The position numbers were made by a program, and so were the translations under genes. Under the pieces are notes generated by a model. The model did no database searches, had not been told where the DNA came from, and saw only the letters and a list, made by a program, of their open reading frames with translations. A stretch of DNA of 64,000 nt from Blastococcus haudaquaticus (GTDB taxonomy: Bacteria; Actinomycetota; Actinomycetes; Mycobacteriales; Geodermatophilaceae), in assembly GCF_900230285.1 (NCBI RefSeq), contig NZ_OCNK01000002.1, positions 248,001 through 312,000 of the forward strand, in the 5' to 3' direction. Positions 26,344 to 35,425 of this stretch are shown piece after piece (within the stretch, counting starts at the first letter, position 1; the number at the start of each line of letters is the position of its first letter).

Positions 26344-26440
26344 CAAGCGCTCAATCACCAGTGAACCAGGTTCGCCTCTTTGGCGGCGGGCACGACGGTC
26401 GCGGGACGTGAGTGGCAGATCACCCCGGCCAAGCGCTCAA
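26344..26440. promoter_or_regulatory. Direct repeat CAAGCGCTCAA, two copies, in the LLM/GGDEF gap
   Basis: CAAGCGCTCAA occurs at 26344-26354 and again at 26430-26440, exact over 11 bases and 86 bases apart (about eight helical turns). Both copies contain the palindrome AGCGCT. They flank the region where the divergent promoters of the LLM oxidoreductase and GGDEF gene should lie, the arrangement expected for a looping or cooperative regulator. No other gene fits in this gap. Confidence 0.5.
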
Positions 26441-26470
26441 GCTGCACGTATGTCCTGTCGATGGGGACGG

Positions 26471-28093
26471 GTGACCTCTTCCACGCACGCCCGCGACGAT
26501 GCCGGGGCCGGCGCCGTGCTCCCCGACGTCGACGGTCGCGGCCGGGCGCTCGCAGCGTCCGTCGCGGAGCTGGAGATCCTGTCCCGGTTCGACCGGGAGG
26601 ACGTCGACGCGCTGGCCGAGCAGGCGCTCGCCGCCGCTGAGGAGCTCGGGCTGACCGACCTCGTGCTGCGCGCCCGTCTGGTGCAGGCCGATCTGCTCCG
26701 GCGCCGCGGCAACGTGGCCGAGGCCGGTCGCCAGGCCCAGGAGACCCAGCGCTGGGCCGCCGAGCACGGCGCGACCCACCTCCGGGCGCGCACGCACTTC
26801 GTCCTGGCGTCGGTGTTCCAGGAACTCGGCGACCTGTCCCTCGCGCTCGAGCACGCCGTCCGCTCGGTGGAGCTGCTCGACGACGAGGCCCTGCCCGAGA
26901 CCCGCATCGACCACCTCGCCCGCCTCGCCGACTGCCTGGGCCTCAGCGGCGACGTCGCCGCGCGGGAGCGCTACGACCACGTCCTCGGCCTGGCCGAGGC
27001 ACTCGGCGACATCGAGCGCCAGCTGTTGGTCCTCAACAACCGCGCCTACTGCGAGACCGTCGCCGGCGCGTTCGAGGAGGCCCTCTTCTGGAGCACCAGG
27101 CTCCAGGAGCTGACCGACCAGCACGACGCCGAGCTGGCGGTGGGCCGGCTGGACACCGTCGGCCGGTCGCTCATGGAACTGGGCCGCCTCGACGAGGCCG
27201 AGGCCGCGATGCTGCCGGGCGAGCGACCCGAGGCCCTCGACGCGTCGCTCGACGGCGACGCCGGCGCGGACTTCCTGCTCACCCTCGCCGAGGTACGACG
27301 CCGTCGGGGGCACCTCACCGGCGCCCAGCAGACCCTGGACGAGTGCGTGCGCCGGTGTGACACCTACGGCCTCACCGCCATCCGCGTGCGCGCCCGGCGC
27401 GAGCAGGCCGAGCTGCACGCCGCCGCCGGGGACTTCCGCGCGGCTTACGCCGAGCACAAGCTCTACTGCGACGAGCTCATGGACCTGCAGTCCGCCGAGC
27501 GCGACGCCCGCGCCCGGGCCCTGCAGGCGATGTACGAGACGGACGAGGCGCGCCGGCAGACCCGTCGCTACCGCGAGCTCTCCCTGCGTGATCCGCTCAC
27601 CGGCCTGTACAACCGCCGCTACGTGGACGACCAGCTCCCCCGGCTGCTGGGCCGCGGCGCCGGCGCCGCCGGCACGGTCACGGTCGCCCTGCTCGACCTC
27701 GACCACTTCAAGCGGATCAACGACACCTGCTCCCACGAGGTCGGCGACCGCGTCCTGCGCACGGTCGCCGAGCTGCTCGGCGAGGCCGGCGGCACCGGGG
27801 ACGACGGCGGTTTCGTGGCCCGGATGGGCGGGGAGGAGTTCCTGCTCGTCCTGGTGGGCCTCGACCCCGCGGCGGCGACCGCGCGGCTGGAGGACCTCCG
27901 CCGGACGATGGCCGCCCACCCGTGGTCGGACCTGACCGCCGGCCTGCCGGTCACCGTCAGCATCGGTGCGGCGTGCGCCCCAGGGTTGACCGACTCCGAG
28001 CCCGCCGAGGTGCTGGCCCGGGCCGACGCCCACCTGTACCTGGCCAAGCGGCAGGGCCGGGACCGCGTCGTCGGGGACGCGTCCCCCTCCTGA
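26471..28093 (+). CDS. TPR-like sensor with GGDEF diguanylate cyclase domain
   Basis: 540-residue cytoplasmic protein. Residues 1-355 are helical tetratricopeptide-like repeats (AEAGRQAQETQRWAAEHGAT, ELGDLSLALEHAVRSVELL, and further units), without membrane segments. Residues about 365-535 are a GGDEF domain: RDPLTGLYNRRYVDDQL, LLDLDHFKRIND, and the active-site motif GGEEF in RMGGEEFLLV. An intact GGEEF indicates active cyclic-di-GMP synthesis from GTP. Start GTG at 26471 (GGGGAC just upstream); ATG at 26450 is an alternative. Its stop directly abuts the stop of the convergent methyltransferase (TGATCA). Confidence 0.9.
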   Translation: MTSSTHARDDAGAGAVLPDVDGRGRALAASVAELEILSRFDREDVDALAEQALAAAEELGLTDLVLRARLVQADLLRRRGNVAEAGRQAQETQRWAAEHGATHLRARTHFVLASVFQELGDLSLALEHAVRSVELLDDEALPETRIDHLARLADCLGLSGDVAARERYDHVLGLAEALGDIERQLLVLNNRAYCETVAGAFEEALFWSTRLQELTDQHDAELAVGRLDTVGRSLMELGRLDEAEAAMLPGERPEALDASLDGDAGADFLLTLAEVRRRRGHLTGAQQTLDECVRRCDTYGLTAIRVRARREQAELHAAAGDFRAAYAEHKLYCDELMDLQSAERDARARALQAMYETDEARRQTRRYRELSLRDPLTGLYNRRYVDDQLPRLLGRGAGAAGTVTVALLDLDHFKRINDTCSHEVGDRVLRTVAELLGEAGGTGDDGGFVARMGGEEFLLVLVGLDPAAATARLEDLRRTMAAHPWSDLTAGLPVTVSIGAACAPGLTDSEPAEVLARADAHLYLAKRQGRDRVVGDASPS

Positions 28094-28765
28094 TCAGCCG
28101 GGCGCCTGCCCGACCAGCAGGTGGTGGGGGTGGATCCGGTGCCGGTCCAGCCGGCGCATCCGGACGTCGCGGAGTCCGCTCCCGGTGAGCCAGCCGGCCC
28201 GTTCCTCGGGATCGACGAAGGCGAACTCGCGCGATCCCGCGGTGATGCGGAGGACGCGTACCGACAGCGACTCCTGGACGGCGTTCCACCGGGCCTTCCA
28301 GCGGGGCCGGGTGGCCATGTCCTTGACCACGAGCAGCCCACCCGGAGCCAGGGCCGCGGCGGCGGACTCCAGCAGCGCCCGCTGGGAGGCGGTGTCCAGG
28401 AGGTACAGCACGTCCACGAGGACGACGGCGTCCCACGGCCCGGCCGGCACCGAGCCGGACCGGCCCACGGCGAACTCCAGGCGTCCGCCGTCGACCGGCG
28501 CGGAGGCCGCGGCCACGGCGATCTTCTCGGCGTCGATGTCGACGCCCAGGACCTGCAGTCCCGGGGACCGCCGCGCGGCGTAGGCGCTGAACAACCCGTG
28601 CCCGCAGCCGATCTCCAGGACCCGCCCCGTCGAGGGCAGCACGTCGGCGACCGGGGGGAACGGGCAGCTCAGCCAACGCACCCAGACGTGCAGCCGATCG
28701 CCCCGGGGTGCGTCCCGGTAGGCGCCGAGGGCCTGCCGTCCCGCTGCGTCCGGGCGACGGCTCAC
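28094..28765 (-). CDS. Class I SAM-dependent methyltransferase
   Basis: 223 residues; motif I VLEIGCGHGLFSAYAA (about 53-68), the acidic motif LGVDIDAEKI, motif with WDAVVLVDVLYLLD and post-motif LAPGGLLVVKD are all clear. GTG at 28765 overlaps the stop of the deacetylase gene (GTGA), so this is the last gene of a four-gene overlapped unit. No membrane segment. It probably methylates a product of the preceding sugar or lipid-modifying enzymes; the target is not known. Confidence 0.86.
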   Translation of the reverse strand: MSRRPDAAGRQALGAYRDAPRGDRLHVWVRWLSCPFPPVADVLPSTGRVLEIGCGHGLFSAYAARRSPGLQVLGVDIDAEKIAVAAASAPVDGGRLEFAVGRSGSVPAGPWDAVVLVDVLYLLDTASQRALLESAAAALAPGGLLVVKDMATRPRWKARWNAVQESLSVRVLRITAGSREFAFVDPEERAGWLTGSGLRDVRMRRLDRHRIHPHHLLVGQAPG

Positions 28766-29601
28766 CGGGTTCCTGCCACGTCGGCGAACGTACCGAACCG
28801 CCAACCCGAGCCCTCGACCAGCGCCCGGGTGGCCGGGTCCGTCAGCATCATCAGCTCGTCGGCCCAGCGGTAGTCCCACGCGAAGCGGGTGAGCCCGGGG
28901 TCGCCGGCCTCGCCCGGGTGCACGTTGATCTCGGCCGTGGTCGCGGCGGACGCGGTGAGCCGCTGCAGCGCCGCCGCGAACCGCTCGCCGTCCATGCCGC
29001 CGGCCTCGTCGAGGCCCGCGTAGCCGTCGGTCGTGGCCAGCCCGGCGCGGCCGAGCCGACGACGCAGTCGCCCGGCCAGCAGCCGCACGCCGGCACCGAG
29101 GGGTCCGGTGCGGGAACTCCCGGGCAGGCGCACCGCGCCGATGCCGGCCTCGCGCGCGAGCTCGACGACGACGCCGGCCACGGCCGGCCACAGGTGCGTG
29201 TGCTGGTGCGTGTCGAGGTGGGTGAGCGGCACGCCGATCCCGCGCACCCGCTCCAGCTGGGCGCGGAACTCCCGCGCGACGTCGGCCGGGTCCAGACGTC
29301 CGGCCGCTCCCCGGGCGACGACGGTCCGGTAGGACAGCGGGAAGCGGCCCTCACGGTCGACGAGGGTGGGCACCTCGGCGGCCGACAGCAGTGGGCGGTC
29401 CTCCCCCACGATCGCCAGGTGCGCGCCGAGGGCCAGGTCGCCGGCGTCGCGGACGATCGCCGCCGCCTCCTCGAACGCGGTGCCGACCGCGAGGACCGAC
29501 GTCGAGGTCACGACGCCTCCGTCGTGAGCCCGCCGGACCGCCCGGCACACCCCGGAGGTCAGCCCCATGTCGTCGGCGTTGACCACCAGCAGGCGGCTCA
29601 C
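28762..29601 (-). CDS. YdjC/ChbG-family carbohydrate deacetylase (NaxD-like)
   Basis: 279-residue deacetylase of the ChbG/HpnK (YdjC) family: VNADDMGL near the N-terminus (metal and catalytic Asp), LGAHLAIVGE (metal His region) and HLDTHQHTHLWP (His cluster). The family removes acetyl groups from chito-oligosaccharides (ChbG) or from lipid-linked amino sugars (NaxD of Francisella, HpnK in hopanoids). Overlaps the GT2 gene by 4 bases upstream and the methyltransferase downstream. Next to a polyprenyl-phosphate-type GT2 and a GT-C enzyme, the lipid-linked amino sugar is the best guess for the substrate. Confidence 0.87.
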   Translation of the reverse strand: MSRLLVVNADDMGLTSGVCRAVRRAHDGGVVTSTSVLAVGTAFEEAAAIVRDAGDLALGAHLAIVGEDRPLLSAAEVPTLVDREGRFPLSYRTVVARGAAGRLDPADVAREFRAQLERVRGIGVPLTHLDTHQHTHLWPAVAGVVVELAREAGIGAVRLPGSSRTGPLGAGVRLLAGRLRRRLGRAGLATTDGYAGLDEAGGMDGERFAAALQRLTASAATTAEINVHPGEAGDPGLTRFAWDYRWADELMMLTDPATRALVEGSGWRFGTFADVAGTR

Positions 29602-30374
29602 TCTGTCTTCGGCGCGTGGTCGATCGATGCGGTGGCGATCGGCGCGATCCCGGCCAGTTCGGACCGCAGCTCACGCATCTCCTTCAGCATCCGCCGGATC
29701 ACGGCCGGCGACGACAACGTCGACACCCCACGCGACCGGGGGAAGTAGTCCACACCGATCTGCACGATGTGGAAGCCGAGCTTCTGCGCCCGGATGACCA
29801 GCTCGGCATCGATGAACGATCCCTCGCTGACCGGCTGGGCGACGTCCAGCACGTGCCGGCGCACCAGCTTGAACGCGAAGTTGATGTCTCGGACCCGGGT
29901 GCCGAACGACATCTGCACCAGGGCGTTGTAGATGAAGGAGTAGACCGCGCGCCTGGGGCCCTCGCCGGTGCGGTCGAGGCGGTAGGCGCTCACCATGTCC
30001 GCCTCGTAGTGCCGGAGCACCCGCAGGGCGCGGCCCAGCTCGAGCATCTCGAAGGGCAGGTCGGCGTCGGTGTAGAGGACGACGTCCCCGCGGACGTTGG
30101 CGAAGCCGGTCTTGATGCTGCCACCGAGGCCACGGTTGACCGGGTGGTGCACGACGCGGATCCGGGGGTCGGCCTCGGCGAGGGCGTCGGCGATCTCCGC
30201 CGTCCGGTCGGTCGAGCAGTCGTCGATGATGAGCAGCTCGTACGCGGCGATCTCACCGATGTCGATGAGTCGCTGGCACTCGTCCTCCGCGGCGCGCACG
30301 GCGCGCTCCACGTAGTCCTCCTCGTTCCACATCGGGAAGAAGATCGAGAGCAGGTCGACCTTGGACTGGATCAT
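29598..30374 (-). CDS. Family 2 glycosyltransferase, polyprenyl-phosphate sugar synthase type
   Basis: 258-residue GT-A fold transferase: IFFPMWNEEDYVERAV, LLIIDDCSTDRTAEI, GLGGSIKTGFANVRGD and the DxD region LYTDADLPFEMLE match the dolichyl/polyprenyl-phosphate transferase group (DPM1, ArnC, PpgS). No C-terminal membrane pair is seen, so it would act at the membrane face on undecaprenyl or decaprenyl phosphate. ATG at 30374 overlaps the GT-C gene stop (ATGA). Likely makes the lipid-linked sugar used by the next enzyme. Confidence 0.88.
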   Translation of the reverse strand: MIQSKVDLLSIFFPMWNEEDYVERAVRAAEDECQRLIDIGEIAAYELLIIDDCSTDRTAEIADALAEADPRIRVVHHPVNRGLGGSIKTGFANVRGDVVLYTDADLPFEMLELGRALRVLRHYEADMVSAYRLDRTGEGPRRAVYSFIYNALVQMSFGTRVRDINFAFKLVRRHVLDVAQPVSEGSFIDAELVIRAQKLGFHIVQIGVDYFPRSRGVSTLSSPAVIRRMLKEMRELRSELAGIAPIATASIDHAPKTE

Positions 30375-31678
30375 GAGACCTCCACGCCGTTGACGAAGGC
30401 GACCGTGGCGATGCACAGCCCCACCAGAAGTACTGCGAGCACCACCGGCACCAGCCGGCGCGGCCGGCGGTCACCGGTGAGCACCACTGCTGCCGCGGCG
30501 AGGACGGGGAAGGCGGCGAGGACGTAGCGCCCGGAGCCCATGAAGTCCTTGGTGCCGATGATCGGGATCGCGAGGGCGATGACGGTGTACGCCGCGTAGC
30601 CCCAGCCGAACCGGCGCCACACCGTGCGCACCAGCAGGACCGCCGCCAGGCACGCCAGCGCCTGCGGGACGAGCAGGACGGCGTCGTGCCAGATGCCCTT
30701 CAGCAGCGTGCCGATGAACGGCACCTTGAACCAGGTGTACGGGCCCGCTCCCTGGTTCCACCCCGGCGCACCCTGGACCGTGGCGAAGGCGACCGGGTCA
30801 CCGAAGCGGACCCCCAGGTAGCTCATCCACGCCACCAGGCCGGCACCGGAGAGGAGCAGCGACGCCTCACGCCAGCGCATCCGGGGAACCGCGTCGACCA
30901 GCGCGCGGAGCGGGAGCGGACGGGATGGGAGCGGACGGGGCGGGACCGCGACGCCGTCCGGGGGCTCCGCGTGCGCGCCCGTCCCCGCACCGCTACCGAC
31001 GAGGGCGGCGGCGTCCCGGCGCGCGGATCGCTCCTCGGCGATCAGCTCGGCCGCGCGGACGACCAGCCCCGCGGCCACCGCGACCCCGACCGGCCGGCCC
31101 GCCGTCGCCAGGGCCCCCACGAGCCCGGCGAGCACGTAGTGCCGCCGCTCCAGCAGTGCGAACGCCCCGAGGGTCGTCAGCAGGAAGGACGCGTCGCTGT
31201 ACCCGCTGCCGTAGAGGAAGAAGCTGTAGGGGTAGAGCAGCGCCACGGCCACCGCGACCACGGCGGTGCGCGGTGCCAGCCGGGCGCGCACCCAGTCGGC
31301 GAAGAGCATGAGCGCGCCGGACGCGCAGACGAGCGTCACGAGGCCGGCGGCGGTGGAGTAGTCCCCGCCGAGCACCTGACCGACCGCGAGGACCAGCAGC
31401 GGGAAGACCGGGAAGAACGCGATCGACGACTGCTGGCCGGGTGTGTAGGAGTACCCCTCCGCAGCGATGGAGTGGTACCAGCCCGAGTCCCCCTGGAACC
31501 ACACGTCCAGCCAGGCGGGTCCGTCGAGGTACTGGTGGCTGATCGGCGGGCCCACCGTCGCGTAGGTCGCCCACGCGAGCGTCGACAGGACGACGGTCCC
31601 GACGAGGAAGGCGGCCAGCGTGTAGAGCGGCAGACGACGGACGACCACCTCGAGCAGGTCCCCCCGCGGCTGTGTCAC
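30371..31678 (-). CDS. GT-C membrane glycosyltransferase (PIG-V/mannosyltransferase family)
   Basis: 435-residue polytopic protein with about 10 membrane helices. WFQGDSGWYHSIAAEGYSY carries the GT-C type Asp (GDSGWY) in the first extracytoplasmic loop, and SSIAFFPVFPLL is the PIG-V-like signature. An extra basic/Pro-rich cytoplasmic loop (RPLPSRPLPLRALVD, about residues 225-250) is unusual. It would transfer a sugar from a polyprenyl-phosphate carrier on the outer face. GTG at 31678 is the first gene of the four-gene overlapped unit. Confidence 0.86.
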   Translation of the reverse strand: MTQPRGDLLEVVVRRLPLYTLAAFLVGTVVLSTLAWATYATVGPPISHQYLDGPAWLDVWFQGDSGWYHSIAAEGYSYTPGQQSSIAFFPVFPLLVLAVGQVLGGDYSTAAGLVTLVCASGALMLFADWVRARLAPRTAVVAVAVALLYPYSFFLYGSGYSDASFLLTTLGAFALLERRHYVLAGLVGALATAGRPVGVAVAAGLVVRAAELIAEERSARRDAAALVGSGAGTGAHAEPPDGVAVPPRPLPSRPLPLRALVDAVPRMRWREASLLLSGAGLVAWMSYLGVRFGDPVAFATVQGAPGWNQGAGPYTWFKVPFIGTLLKGIWHDAVLLVPQALACLAAVLLVRTVWRRFGWGYAAYTVIALAIPIIGTKDFMGSGRYVLAAFPVLAAAAVVLTGDRRPRRLVPVVLAVLLVGLCIATVAFVNGVEVS

Positions 31679-31752
31679 GTCGGGCAATGTAGGGGCGTCA
31701 GCGGACGCGAGTACAGGAACTCCCGCGATCCGCGGCACACCTGGGACTGATG

Positions 31753-31766
31753 GGGCAGGCCTGCCC
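31753..31766. promoter_or_regulatory. 14-bp palindrome GGGCAGGCCTGCCC in a divergent gap
   Basis: Perfect 14-bp palindrome midway in the 144-base gap between the glycosyltransferase unit and the DMT-like transporter, 56 bases before the latter's GTG. It could be an operator shared by both. In GC-rich DNA such palindromes arise by chance more often, so the claim is modest. Confidence 0.35.
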
Positions 31767-31822
31767 ACAGGGGTACCGCGCCGCGCCCGGCGGCCGGTCG
31801 CTACGCGAAGGAATGAGGACGC

Positions 31823-32662
31823 GTGCTGGTCGCGGTGCTGGCCATTTCCGGGGCGGCGCTCTGCTACGGCGCGTCGGCCGTGTTCCAGGCGTCCGCCGTC
31901 GCCCGGTCGGGCCGGACGGACCTGACCGGCCTCCTGGGACGCCTGGCGATCGATCCGCGCTACCTGTGCGGGCTGGCCCTCGTGGCGGCCGGGTTCCTGC
32001 TGTCCGTCGTCGCCATCCGGGCGCTGCCGTTGTTCGTCGTCCAGGCCGGGCGCGCCTCCAGCCTGGGGGTGACCGCCGTGCTCGCCGCCGTCTTCCTCGG
32101 CTCCCGCCTGCAGCGCCGGGAGCAGCAGGCCCTCGCCGGGGTCGGGCTGGGGCTGGTCGCGGTGGCGCTCGCGGCGAGACCGCAGGGTCCCGCGGAGGTG
32201 CCCGGCGCGGTGCGCTGGGCGGTGCTGGCCGCCGCCGTGGTGGTGGCCGTGCTGGCCGTCGCCTCGGCCCGCACCCGCCCCGCCCCGCTGAACGCGGCGC
32301 TGGTGGCCGTGCTCGCCGGCAGTTCCTTCGGCTTGCTCGCCCTCGCCGCCCGCGTCCTGGGGCCCATCTCGCTGCCCGGGGTGCTCACCGATCCCAGCGC
32401 GTACGCCGTCGGGCTGACCAGCGCCGCCGGACTGCTGGCCGGTGCGCTGGCGCTGCAACGGGGCACCGTCGTCATGGTGACCACGACGATGGTGGCCACC
32501 GAGGCCACGCTGGGCTCCCTGCTGGGGTTGGCCGTGGGTGACCGGCCCGCGGAGGGCCTGGGCTGGCTGGCAGCCCTCGGGTTCGCGGTCACGGTGGGGA
32601 GCGCGCTGTTCCTCGCCCGGTTCGGCGCGGTGGCCGCCGAAGCGCCCGCCGACGCCCCGTAG
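31823..32662 (+). CDS. DMT-superfamily membrane transporter
   Basis: 279-residue membrane protein with nine or ten hydrophobic segments, an EamA/NIPA-like drug/metabolite transporter fold: FQASAVARSGRTDL loop, LFVVQAGRASSLGVTAVLA, and MVTTTMVATEATLG in the last helices. GTG at 31823. Substrate unknown; NIPA relatives move Mg2+, EamA relatives export metabolites. Followed 27 bases later by the frameshifted GH16-like gene. Confidence 0.8.
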   Translation: MLVAVLAISGAALCYGASAVFQASAVARSGRTDLTGLLGRLAIDPRYLCGLALVAAGFLLSVVAIRALPLFVVQAGRASSLGVTAVLAAVFLGSRLQRREQQALAGVGLGLVAVALAARPQGPAEVPGAVRWAVLAAAVVVAVLAVASARTRPAPLNAALVAVLAGSSFGLLALAARVLGPISLPGVLTDPSAYAVGLTSAAGLLAGALALQRGTVVMVTTTMVATEATLGSLLGLAVGDRPAEGLGWLAALGFAVTVGSALFLARFGAVAAEAPADAP

Positions 32663-32689: not shown

Positions 32690-33459
32690 ATGCTGCCGAT
32701 CAGCCCCGGCTTCGCCGACGAGTTCGACGGACCGGACCTCGACCGGTCCGTCTGGCTGCCGCACTACCTGCCGGCCTGGAGCTCCCGTGCGGCCACGGCG
32801 GCCGCCTACGAGCTCCGGGACGGCTGCCTGCACCTGTCCATCCCGGCCGACCAGGGGCTGTGGTTGCCAGGCGAGCACGAGCCGCCGCTGCGGGTCTCGG
32901 GGATCCAGTCGGGCAACTTCTCCGGTCCGGTGGGCAGCACCGTCGGCCAGCAGCCGTGGCGGGCCGGCGCCGTGGTCTGCGAGGAGCAGGAGACCTTCTG
33001 GGGCTGGACCCCGGACCACGGCCGCCTGGAGATGCGGGCCCGGGCCCAGCTCACCCCTCGTTCCATGGCGGCGTGGTGGCTGGTGGGCCTCGAGGACGTG
33101 CCGGAGCGGTGCGCGGAGATCTGCGTCTTCGAGGTGTTCGGCGACGCCGTCGAGCCCGGGACCTCAGCGGCCGTCGGCATGGGGCTGCACGCCTTCCGCG
33201 ACCCGGACGCCCCCGAGGACTTCGCGGCGTCCGGCTGCCGATCGACGTCGCGGAGTTCCACACCTACGCCGTCGACTGGACCGCCGAGCGGGCGGAGTTC
33301 TCCGTCGACGGCACCGTCGTCCGGAGCTGCCCCCGCCCGCCGGCCTACCCGATGCAGCTGATGATCGCGGTCTTCGACTTCCCCGACCGGTCCACGGGGG
33401 CGGACGACGACGCGGTGCCGCGGCTCGTCGTCGACCACCTCCGTGGGTCGGAGAACTAG
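32690..33459 (+). pseudogene. GH16/laminarinase-like protein gene with a single-base frameshift
   Basis: A beta-jelly-roll protein of the GH16-like (concanavalin A-like) type split over two frames. From ATG 32690 the frame reads FADEFDGPDLDRSVWLPHYLPAW and continues to DAPEDFAAS near 33230; homologous sequence resumes in another frame as LPIDVAEFHTYAVDWTAERAEF and runs to 33459. The join needs one extra C at the GTCCGG around 33231, so one base has been lost from what was probably a CCC run. The active-site motif, normally E-I-D-x-x-E, reads EICVFE, with the middle Asp replaced by Cys, so catalysis is doubtful even if the frame is restored. Could be a true pseudogene or an assembly error. Confidence 0.8.
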
Positions 33460-33460
33460 C

Positions 33461-35425
33461 TCATCCGTCGTCCCGCACCATGCCCCCGGCGCCCGCTCCG
33501 GCCGAGACGGGCGCGCCGTTCTCGGCGCCGGTCAGGGCGCCACCGTGATCGTCGGCGGCCGTCCGGGGCATCACGACGTTGGGCAGCTCGGCACCGCCGG
33601 ACCCGGTGTCCTCGTGCGACGTCCGGACCGGACCGTCGAGCTCCGCCGCCCCCTGGCCGTCCGCGGCCATCGCGTCCTCGGCGGCCACGGATACTCCCGC
33701 CGAGACGATCCCGCCGAAGGCGGCCGGGATCTCGTCGCCCGCGGGGAGGTCGTCGGCACCGTCGAGGAGCGCCCCGGACGCCGGGTTGACCTGCTCGAAG
33801 TCGACGAGGCGGAGGCCCTGGCCGGCCAGCTCCTCCCACTTGGCCCGGAAGCTCTCCCAGGTCACGTTGGCCCACAGCGCGTAGCCGTCCTGCCCGGGCA
33901 GGAAAGCGCCGGAGAACCGGATCTCGTTGCCCACGCGGTGCTGGTTGAGGTCAACCAGACGCAGGCCCTGCCCGCCCCATTCCTGCCACTTGGCCACGAA
34001 GCTCGCCCACGAGGCGTTCACCCAGAGCGCGTGCCCGCCGCCGCCTGGAAGGAAGACCCCGGTGTAGCGGTCCTGACCGGCGACCTGGTGCACGTGCAGG
34101 TCGTGCAACCGCAGCCCCTGCGTGCTCCACTGCTCCCACTGGGCGCGGAAGCTGTCCCAGCTCGCGCCCACCCACAGCGCGTGCCCGCCACTGCCGGCGA
34201 GGAAGGCGCCGGTGTACCGGTCCTGACCGCCGACGTTGGCCACGTGGATGTCGATGAGCCGCAGGCCCTGCCGGCTCCACTCGTCCCACTTCGCCTGGAA
34301 GCTCTTCCAGCTGGCGTTCGCCCAGAGGGCGTGGCCTCCGCTCCCGGGGAGGAAGACCCCGGAGTACCGGGCGCCGTCGCGCACGGGCCGCACGTGCACG
34401 TCCACGAGCCGCAGGCCGTCGGCGCTCCACTGCTGCCACTTGGCGGCGAAGCCGTCCCAGGTGTCGTTGACCCACAGCGCGTAGCGCCCGCTGCCGGCCC
34501 GCCAGACACCCGAGTAGCCCTTCTCGAAGAACCGCTCGTACATCTTCGCGACCGTCTGCCGGTCGCCGGGGCTCATGCCGTTGCGCTGGCCGATCGTCAC
34601 GCCCGACTGGCGGGGCACGATCGTCGGCTTCGACGTGTCCTTCGCGAAGGCGGTCGCGTGGTAGTGCATGAGCGAGCCGTAGTCGTAGCCGAAGTAGTCG
34701 GTGGAACCCGGCTTGGTCTGGAAGTTGTGCCGGGTGTCGTTCTCCCCCTCCGGCGGCGGGCCGTCCTGGATGTTGTCCCACTTGATCTCCACGAAGGAGT
34801 CGCGGTCGGACCGGGACTGCTCGTGGTAGACGCCCAGGGCGTGCAGGAACTCGTGCACGAGGATCGGCCACGGGTGCGCGTCCGCGAGCCGCAGGTCCTG
34901 CCGGCCGCCGCGCATGCCGATCGCCGAGGAGCTCGACGTGGCCGCGCCGTTGCTGACGACCTGGATCCAGTTGGGCAGGGAACCCGCGTTCGCCGCCGTG
35001 CGCAGCGTGAAGCGGATCCCGGTGTTCTGCTGCAGGTGGGCGATCGCGTCGGTGACCCGCTGCTGGTTCGGCAGGCCCGCGTCGATCGCATAGGCGACCT
35101 GGCCGGCCGGCCAGAGGAACGCGGAGTCCGACGGCAGCCCGATGCCGAAGGGCGTCACCGTCAGCCGTGCGTCGCCGTCCTCGCTGCCGGCGAAGGCGGT
35201 CGTGAGGCGGGCCTCCCGCCGGGCGGCCACCTCGGCGGCCTGGGCCTCGACCTCGTCGACCGGCCCCATGTCGATGCAGCCGTCGTGGATGGCCCGGCCG
35301 TCGACGACGGCGTACCGGACCGGGTGCTCGAACAGCCCCGGGCCGGTGAGGAAGCCGCTCCCGCTCACCGGGCCGGCGGCCATGTGGTCGACGACGCCGA
35401 GCTGCCTGTCGTCCTGCGTACTCAT
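33461..35425 (-). CDS. Astacin-type (M12A) metallopeptidase with five 50-residue repeats
   Basis: 654 residues. Residues about 90-300 form an astacin catalytic domain: zinc motif HEFLHALGVYHEQSR (His191, Glu192, His195, His201) and Met-turn SLMHY (251-255). No signal peptide is visible. Residues about 304-545 hold five tandem repeats of exactly 50 residues with pattern Y-S/T-G-x-F-x-P/A-G-S-G-G-x-ALW-x-x-x-W-x-x-F-x-x-K-W-x-x-W-x-x-x-GLRL-x-D, matching bacterial tandem repeat domain 1 (BTRD1). The C-terminal 100 residues are acidic and low-complexity. The repeats probably bind a polymer or protein. ATG at 35425; the gene ends 1 base from the GH16-like gene on the other strand. Confidence 0.87.
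   Translation of the reverse strand: MSTQDDRQLGVVDHMAAGPVSGSGFLTGPGLFEHPVRYAVVDGRAIHDGCIDMGPVDEVEAQAAEVAARREARLTTAFAGSEDGDARLTVTPFGIGLPSDSAFLWPAGQVAYAIDAGLPNQQRVTDAIAHLQQNTGIRFTLRTAANAGSLPNWIQVVSNGAATSSSSAIGMRGGRQDLRLADAHPWPILVHEFLHALGVYHEQSRSDRDSFVEIKWDNIQDGPPPEGENDTRHNFQTKPGSTDYFGYDYGSLMHYHATAFAKDTSKPTIVPRQSGVTIGQRNGMSPGDRQTVAKMYERFFEKGYSGVWRAGSGRYALWVNDTWDGFAAKWQQWSADGLRLVDVHVRPVRDGARYSGVFLPGSGGHALWANASWKSFQAKWDEWSRQGLRLIDIHVANVGGQDRYTGAFLAGSGGHALWVGASWDSFRAQWEQWSTQGLRLHDLHVHQVAGQDRYTGVFLPGGGGHALWVNASWASFVAKWQEWGGQGLRLVDLNQHRVGNEIRFSGAFLPGQDGYALWANVTWESFRAKWEELAGQGLRLVDFEQVNPASGALLDGADDLPAGDEIPAAFGGIVSAGVSVAAEDAMAADGQGAAELDGPVRTSHEDTGSGGAELPNVVMPRTAADDHGGALTGAENGAPVSAGAGAGGMVRDDG
33791..34516 (-). 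repeat. 150-bp coding tandem repeats (five copies)
   Basis: Five diverged 150-bp units, each coding one 50-residue BTRD1-like repeat of the metallopeptidase. The period is exact across all five copies and the core words (ALW, KW, GLRL) repeat at the same place in each. The recurring DNA core ends in the GAGCCGCAGGCCCTG-like segment that codes QGLRL. Confidence 0.8.

What the first reader, a model, noticed from the sequence alone, without database searches (positions are those of the whole stretch)
28094..31678. Four-gene lipid-linked amino-sugar cassette in a Gram-positive actinobacterium
GT-C, polyprenyl-phosphate-type GT2, YdjC/ChbG deacetylase and methyltransferase are joined by three ATGA/GTGA overlaps. 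GT2 plus YdjC deacetylase plus GT-C is the same logic as FlmF2/NaxD/FlmK of Francisella and, with a different deacetylase, ArnC/ArnD/ArnT, which attach amino sugars to lipid A. Actinobacteria have no lipid A, but mycobacteria put galactosamine on arabinogalactan from a polyprenyl-phosphate donor (PpgS, Rv3779). A dedicated deacetylase and a methyltransferase in the same unit would be a new variant.
Basis: partly seen in the sequence, partly recalled or inferred. Interest (0 to 1): 0.77.

Follow-up and report, generated by a model that had tools for sequence, protein, structure and literature searches.

The report
Conserved five-gene amino-sugar export cassette
A soil actinobacterium, in a group without lipid A and without the mycobacterial arabinan genes, carries a tightly packed gene block, kept in at least 22 genomes, that most likely loads an amino sugar onto a membrane lipid, exposes its charged amine, flips it out and attaches it to the cell surface; it suggests what kinds of enzyme may do the deacetylase and flippase steps still unidentified in the related pathway of Mycobacterium.

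Summary
GT-C (30371-31678), GT2 (29598-30374), YdjC deacetylase (28762-29601) and methyltransferase (28094-28765), all minus strand, are joined by ATGA/GTGA/GTGA overlaps. In 16 genomes of the genus, YdjC, GT2 and DMT are present together in 7 and absent together in 9; an empty site shows the block missing between GGDEF and YihY. The order recurs in Geodermatophilaceae, Nakamurella, Cellulomonadaceae and two families of another class. YdjC resembles HpnK (acts on lipid-linked GlcNAc) more than ChbG; GT2 is ArnC/DPMS-like; GT-C has the GT-C fold. A nucleotide-sugar 4-epimerase has joined the block in several lineages. Best reading: polyprenyl-phosphate-HexNAc is made, deacetylated, methylated, flipped and transferred to an unknown surface acceptor, as in Flm/Arn and mycobacterial galactosamine decoration, but it is not a member of any of them. 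Hopanoid (no SHC) and Emb-type arabinan (no Emb) acceptors are unlikely. The chemistry is inferred. New variant of a known kind.

The parts
30371..31678 (-). GT-C membrane glycosyltransferase, 435 aa, GTG start; first gene of the operon
   Evidence: Orthologues weakly match PIG-V PF04188 and PMT_2 PF13231; model matches OST, AftD, Emb, ArnT and GPI mannosyltransferase I; invariant W56, D58, D64 and a conserved segment around Y78-P90 near the N-terminal side
29598..30374 (-). GT2 of the polyprenyl-phosphate type, 258 aa, ATG start, no C-terminal membrane helices apparent
   Evidence: PF00535 4.6e-29; ArnC model 65.9 bits, PgfS 63.4, archaeal dolichyl-phosphate hexose transferase 42; solved relatives ArnC 2e-14 and dolichol-phosphate mannose synthase 1.8e-8; invariant TDADLP
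28762..29601 (-). YdjC/ChbG-type N-deacetylase, 279 aa, GTG start, no signal sequence apparent (cytosolic)
   Evidence: PF04794 1.4e-60; HpnK TIGR03473 184.7 bits, chitin disaccharide deacetylase 120.4; motifs ADDxG, GAHLA, HxDTHQH and NxHP invariant in 15 sequences
28094..28765 (-). SAM-dependent methyltransferase, 223 aa, GTG start; last gene, its stop codon abuts the stop of the convergent GGDEF gene with no base between
   Evidence: PF13489 6.8e-16; found in 8 of 397 sampled Actinomycetota genomes, four with the full cassette and three where it overlaps a PMT-like membrane protein gene; missing in L021
31823..32662 (+). Divergent DMT/EamA-like transporter, 279 aa, GTG start: candidate flippase for the lipid-linked amino sugar
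   Evidence: EamA PF00892 in 8 of 14 orthologues, best 9.1e-5; about ten helices in the model; co-inherited with the cassette 7/7 against 0/9 and adjacent in 17 of 17 testable genomes of the class
31679..31822 (.). 144-base divergent intergenic region, presumed promoter region of the transporter and the operon
   Evidence: Spacing 109-191 bases in 14 loci; no strongly conserved motif across genera

Best explanation
The block is a five-gene surface amino-sugar decoration pathway. The cytosolic GT2 moves an N-acetylhexosamine from its UDP donor to polyprenyl phosphate; the cytosolic YdjC enzyme removes the acetyl group of the lipid-linked sugar; the methyltransferase then probably methylates the sugar; the DMT-like protein flips the lipid-linked sugar to the outer leaflet; the GT-C enzyme transfers it to an exported acceptor. 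Shown here: gene content, order, co-inheritance as a unit, families and fold class, conserved motifs. Inferred: every substrate. UDP-GalNAc is the likeliest donor because epimerase genes of a fitting kind have joined the block several times. The acceptor is unknown, and is probably neither a hopanoid nor an Emb-type arabinan.
For: Unit: 22 genomes, conserved order and overlaps; present or absent as one block in the genus, 7/7 against 0/9, Fisher 8.7e-5 with no correction for kinship; empty site with GGDEF and YihY 45 bases apart in G011 (L117) and the five genes between them in G006 (L120). Deacetylase: best match HpnK, which removes acetyl from lipid-bound GlcNAc (PMC12583986); NaxD of the same superfamily deacetylates undecaprenyl-phosphate-GalNAc (PMC11279074). 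GT2: ArnC and DPMS are its nearest solved relatives. GT-C: fold class of polyprenyl-phosphate-sugar users. Methyltransferase: its relatives pair with a PMT-like membrane protein gene even outside the cassette. Epimerase: follows the methyltransferase in G004 and G008 and L018, and lies at the other edge in L015, L021, L022; E. coli GalE Tyr299 aligns with Val in L021, and Ser stands at the matching place in L018 (my reading through 7ys8), which leaves room for an N-acetyl group.
Against: No substrate is shown. The GT-C is as close to PIG-V mannosyltransferases as to ArnT. The transporter's DMT assignment is weak by sequence (best 9e-5) and not significant by fold, and it is not next to the cassette in the other-class genomes G174 and G413. 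The epimerase is not in the window's own block. The best solved match of the deacetylase is a chito-oligosaccharide deacetylase.
Confidence: 0.6

Rival explanations
1. A bacterial GPI-like lipid pathway: GT2 makes polyprenyl-phosphate-mannose, the PIG-V-like GT-C mannosylates a glucosaminyl-phosphatidylinositol that the YdjC enzyme has deacetylated, and the methyltransferase caps it.
For: GT-C orthologues match PIG-V weakly and GPI mannosyltransferase I is among the fold hits; GT2 resembles dolichol-phosphate mannose synthase; a glycophosphatidylinositol lipid is reported from several Geodermatophilaceae (PMC5742155, PMC9686282).
Against: The YdjC gene is absent from 9 of 16 genomes of the genus and, one weak hit apart, from the nine other genera of the family sampled, while that lipid is reported from several genera; no PIG-A-like GlcNAc transferase is in the block; the deacetylase is YdjC, not PIG-L; epimerases joining the block have no role in this scheme.
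Confidence: 0.15
2. Direct glycosylation of a membrane lipid, HpnI/HpnK style: GT2 adds HexNAc straight to a lipid acceptor, YdjC deacetylates it, and the methyltransferase and GT-C elaborate the head group.
For: HpnK is the best family model for the deacetylase; Klenkia marina DSM 45722, which has the cassette (L010), is described with an unidentified aminolipid and an unidentified sugar (PMC5742155).
Against: The GT2 resembles polyprenyl-phosphate enzymes (ArnC 65.9 bits) more than hopanoid-associated ones (HpnB 22 bits); no squalene-hopene cyclase in the genus, so the known acceptor is missing; a GT-C enzyme is expected to need a polyprenyl-phosphate donor (general knowledge).
Confidence: 0.12
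3. A loose neighbourhood of unrelated genes, with YdjC serving chito-oligosaccharide breakdown.
For: The closest solved structure is a chito-oligosaccharide deacetylase.
Against: Order and overlaps kept across two classes, joint presence and absence in the genus.
Confidence: 0.03

Closest known systems
FlmF2/NaxD/FlmK of Francisella (galactosamine on lipid A)
   Same: Polyprenyl-phosphate GT2, YdjC-superfamily deacetylase and GT-C transferase; NaxD acts on undecaprenyl-phosphate-GalNAc (PMC11279074; the Flm gene roles are general knowledge)
   Different: Host belongs to a group without lipid A; the GT-C is PIG-V-like and matches no ArnT/FlmK-type model; extra methyltransferase and a divergent transporter; compact overlapping operon
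ArnC/ArnD/ArnT with ArnE/ArnF (aminoarabinose on lipid A)
   Same: Same logic, including a flippase of the SMR family, which is structurally related to the DMT fold (PMC9574504)
   Different: ArnD is a polysaccharide-deacetylase-type enzyme removing formyl (general knowledge), not YdjC; ArnE/F are small SMR proteins, here a full-length DMT-like protein; ArnC model 65.9 bits against a cut-off of 529
Mycobacterial/corynebacterial galactosamine on arabinogalactan (Rv3634c, PpgS/Rv3632, Rv3779)
   Same: Actinobacterial, polyprenyl-phosphate-HexNAc, Rv3779 transferase, UDP-GalNAc 4-epimerase nearby; its flipping and deacetylation steps are stated to be unidentified (PMC9671496)
   Different: GT2 is not PpgS (28 of 370 bits); no Rv3632-type partner gene in the block; no Emb arabinosyltransferase in this genome; a deacetylase and a transporter are in the block
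HpnI/HpnK (glucosaminyl bacteriohopanetetrol)
   Same: Deacetylase closest to HpnK; the sugar is made as the N-acetyl form on a lipid, then deacetylated (PMC12583986)
   Different: Below the HpnK cut-off (184.7 against 232.6); no squalene-hopene cyclase; a GT-C is present

Membership tests
Flm/Arn amino-sugar transfer to lipid A | Polyprenyl-phosphate-type GT2, deacetylase and GT-C transferase together | tested here: met
   (families and fold class only; activity not shown)
Flm/Arn amino-sugar transfer to lipid A | Lipid A as acceptor | not tested
   lpx genes were not searched; the host is an actinobacterium (Geodermatophilaceae by its relatives), a group not known to make lipid A
Flm/Arn amino-sugar transfer to lipid A | GT2 reaches the ArnC equivalog cut-off | tested here: not met
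   65.9 bits against 529
PpgS/Rv3779 galactosamine pathway | GT2 reaches the PpgS cut-off | tested here: not met
   28.2 bits against 370; no gene in the genome passes it
PpgS/Rv3779 galactosamine pathway | Emb-type arabinan as acceptor | tested here: not met
   PF04602 absent from the genome, control C. glutamicum positive
PpgS/Rv3779 galactosamine pathway | UDP-GalNAc 4-epimerase linked to the pathway | tested here: inconclusive
   Epimerase in the block in G004, G008, L018 and next to it in L015, L021, L022; none in the window's own block, where the nearest homologue is 37% identical and unlinked
HpnK | Score above the curated cut-off | tested here: not met
   184.7 against 232.6 bits
HpnK | Hopanoid pathway in the host | tested here: not met
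   No TIGR01507 match in 16 genomes of the genus
YdjC superfamily deacetylase | PF04794 over cut-off with the conserved D, H, H and HP motifs | tested here: met
   205.9 bits against 29.7; motifs invariant
ChbG chitin disaccharide deacetylase | Score above the equivalog cut-off | tested here: not met
   120.4 against 227 bits
PIG-V (GT76) | PF04188 over cut-off | tested here: not met
   No hit for the window protein; 10 of 14 orthologues hit weakly, best E 0.0012
GT-C superfamily | GT-C fold | tested here: met
   Foldseek ranks 1-28 are GT-C enzymes or OST-containing complexes, probability 0.89 or more, though E-values are 0.004-0.2 and TM about 0.4
DMT/EamA transporter superfamily | EamA domain and ten-helix fold | tested here: inconclusive
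   EamA in 8 of 14 orthologues; fold hits not significant, 5i20 and Vrg4 9s36 at TM 0.38-0.40

The most novel reading that the evidence does not exclude
A self-contained pathway for a methylated free hexosamine on a surface glycan of Gram-positive actinobacteria, using a YdjC deacetylase and a DMT-family flippase, that is, enzyme types able to fill the two steps still unidentified in mycobacterial galactosamine decoration, with an unknown new acceptor.
Probability: 0.35. Interest if true: 0.75.

Novelty: new variant of a known kind. Interest (0 to 1): 0.56.

Why it matters
Positively charged sugars on the cell surface tune resistance to cationic peptides, phage binding and wall properties. In Mycobacterium and Corynebacterium the galactosamine decoration is known, but the factors that flip and deacetylate the lipid-linked precursor are stated to be unidentified (PMC9671496). 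This block bundles a deacetylase and a transporter candidate with two glycosyltransferases, in culturable soil actinobacteria, so the whole route becomes testable by gene deletion and lipid mass spectrometry; it also predicts a new surface glycan in Geodermatophilaceae and Cellulomonadaceae.

Tried and rejected
Hopanoid role for the HpnK-like enzyme: no squalene-hopene cyclase in 16 genomes. Arabinogalactan acceptor: no Emb. PpgS membership: fails the cut-off. Plasmid-borne relatives of GT2 and methyltransferase: none. Sequence search of the GT-C against solved structures, single and profile: nothing. YdjC homologues in family f41 looked like distant cassette members because the methyltransferase co-occurs, but they are unlinked; in two of them YdjC sits beside a GT2 that I read as glucosyl-3-phosphoglycerate-synthase-like (not scored against a family model), so they were set aside. 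Ilumatobacteraceae YdjC (L023) is 51% identical but stands among pyrimidine-synthesis-like genes, with no cassette. A conserved regulatory motif in the divergent spacer: not seen. Papers on galactosamine in Geodermatophilaceae or Cellulomonas walls: nothing usable.
Full report
WHAT IS THERE. The window lies in G000:C5:248001-312000 of a 4.5 Mb genome, 99.97% complete. Its relatives are Geodermatophilaceae, the nearest named loci being Blastococcus. Four minus-strand genes run GT-C 30371-31678, GT2 29598-30374, YdjC 28762-29601, methyltransferase 28094-28765, joined by ATGA, GTGA and GTGA. The methyltransferase stop abuts the stop of a convergent TPR-GGDEF gene (26402-28093) without a base between.

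A FIFTH GENE. Clustering of neighbours showed that the divergent gene at 31823-32662 (+), 144 bases from the GT-C start, is kept beside the cassette. It is adjacent in all 13 fetched loci with enough flank (L009-L017, L019-L022), in the window, and in G004, G008 and G013: 17 genomes of the class. In G003 the two lie on different contigs, and L018 begins inside the GT-C gene, so these two could not be tested. Eight of 14 orthologues match EamA, best 9.1e-5; the model has about ten helices, but its fold hits are not significant, the plausible ones being 5i20 (I recall it as the DMT exporter YddG) and Vrg4 9s36 at TM 0.38-0.40. I call it a DMT-like transporter and a candidate flippase.

THE BLOCK IS A UNIT. 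In 16 genomes of the genus, YdjC, GT2 and this transporter (hits below 30 bits ignored) are present in the same seven and absent from the same nine. An exact test gives 8.7e-5, not corrected for kinship. In G011, which lacks it, the GGDEF gene is followed 45 bases later by the YihY/BrkB gene; in G006 the five genes lie between the same two neighbours. In the window and G013 further genes also lie there.

DISTRIBUTION. Distinct genomes with the cassette: seven of this genus, Klenkia marina, a Modestobacter, a Nakamurella MAG, a Pseudonocardiales MAG, eight Cellulomonadaceae (Cellulomonas, Actinotalea) and three genomes of another class of the phylum (G142, G174, G413), 22 in all. The order GTC-GT2-YdjC-MT is the rule; L015 has GT2-YdjC-MT-GTC and L021 has no methyltransferase. 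A 4-base overlap is seen at 40 of 44 junctions in 15 loci. In the other-class genomes the transporter is not adjacent (G174, G413) or the contig ends (G142). In a sample of 397 genomes of the phylum the methyltransferase profile hits 8 and the YdjC profile 9 at strict cut-offs, seven in common. Third codon positions diverge more than the others, as expected of genes under selection.

THE ENZYMES. YdjC: PF04794 1.4e-60; HpnK 184.7 bits against cut-off 232.6, chitin disaccharide deacetylase 120.4 against 227; all 15 orthologues hit both, HpnK with the better best E-value. Motifs ADDxG, GAHLA, HxDTHQH and NxHP are invariant. It starts directly with the fold and has no apparent signal sequence, so I infer that it works inside the cell. 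NaxD of the same superfamily acts on undecaprenyl-phosphate-GalNAc (PMC11279074). GT2: nearest models ArnC and PgfS, nearest solved structures ArnC and dolichol-phosphate mannose synthase. It lacks ArnC's C-terminal membrane helices, as PpgS and DPM1 do (general knowledge), so it may need a partner. GT-C: no solved relative by sequence; AlphaFold model pLDDT 77.9, pTM 0.82; Foldseek ranks 1-28 are GT-C enzymes or OST-containing complexes, including ArnT with and without undecaprenyl phosphate, AftD, EmbC and GPI mannosyltransferase I, with probability 0.89 or more but E-values of 0.004 or worse. The fold class is clear, the sugar is not. Methyltransferase: class I, substrate unknown. In three genomes of family f41 its relatives (31-43% identical) directly follow and overlap a gene for a PMT-like membrane protein (my reading of the sequence), which ties the family to surface glycosylation. 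Its absence in L021 suggests a tailoring step.

A CLUE TO THE SUGAR. In G004 the next gene after the methyltransferase, overlapping it by four bases (L004 824-827), is a nucleotide-sugar epimerase, and G008 has it too (86% identical, 69861-70676 on the cassette contig). L018 has an epimerase right after the methyltransferase, and three Cellulomonas loci have a GalE-type epimerase (294-319 bits, cut-off 262) at the transporter edge. In L021 the position of E. coli GalE Tyr299, which is Cys in the solved variant 1lrk, is Val; in L018 the matching residue is Ser. That Tyr299Cys admits N-acetylated sugars is general knowledge. The G004 gene is cut short in the fetched locus, so its residue was not read. 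L018's best solved match is 7ys8 (1.8e-83), which I recall, without being able to check it here, as M. tuberculosis Rv3634c. [quoted passage not shown] PMC9671496). This points to UDP-GalNAc, but the window's own block has no epimerase.

MECHANISM. UDP-HexNAc + polyprenyl phosphate (GT2), then deacetylation (YdjC), methylation (MT), flipping (DMT) and transfer outside (GT-C). Arrangement and families are shown; every substrate is inferred. Acceptors made unlikely: hopanoids (no squalene-hopene cyclase in 16 genomes) and Emb-built arabinan. Lipid A synthesis was not searched.

KNOWN SYSTEMS. It works like Flm, Arn and the mycobacterial galactosamine route, but fails the tested cut-offs of ArnC, PpgS, HpnK, ChbG and PIG-V, and so is filed as a new variant. 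For mycobacteria and corynebacteria, flipping and deacetylation are described as done by as yet unidentified factors (PMC9671496). I do not claim that YdjC or DMT orthologues do this there; that was not tested.

LIMITS. No chemistry, a weak transporter assignment, an open choice between hexosamine and mannose for the GT-C, and no name for the window's species. K. marina, which has the block, is reported with an unidentified aminolipid and an unidentified sugar (PMC5742155), which is suggestive only. The literature library holds open-licence papers only, so a description elsewhere cannot be excluded.

Noticed in passing
window 32690-33459 (+): A gene that looks glycosidase-like to me (no Pfam hit) is split between two frames here, whereas in relative G013 (L119, 5469-4708) both pieces are 87% identical and in one frame. 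Either a recent pseudogene or an assembly error.
   Followed up: partly
window 33461-35425 (-): Astacin (M12A) peptidase followed by repeats of the polyglycine-hydrolase type (BTRD1); present in G013 next to the cassette but not found at the same site in G006.
   Followed up: partly
L080 6472-8809, L081 6951-8889, L082 6209-8390: In three small genomes of family f41 a relative of the cassette methyltransferase overlaps the end of a PMT-like membrane protein gene, among what look like haem and cytochrome maturation genes.
   Followed up: partly
L065 6819-11292 (G413): The cassette is flanked by a second copy of the GT-C gene, near genes that look like carbamoyltransferase and adenylation enzymes, so it may sit in a larger surface-glycan locus.
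   Followed up: partly
   Followed up: partly
L061, L064 (G174, G142): A second GT-C of the same family stands alone elsewhere in two genomes that have the cassette.
   Followed up: no
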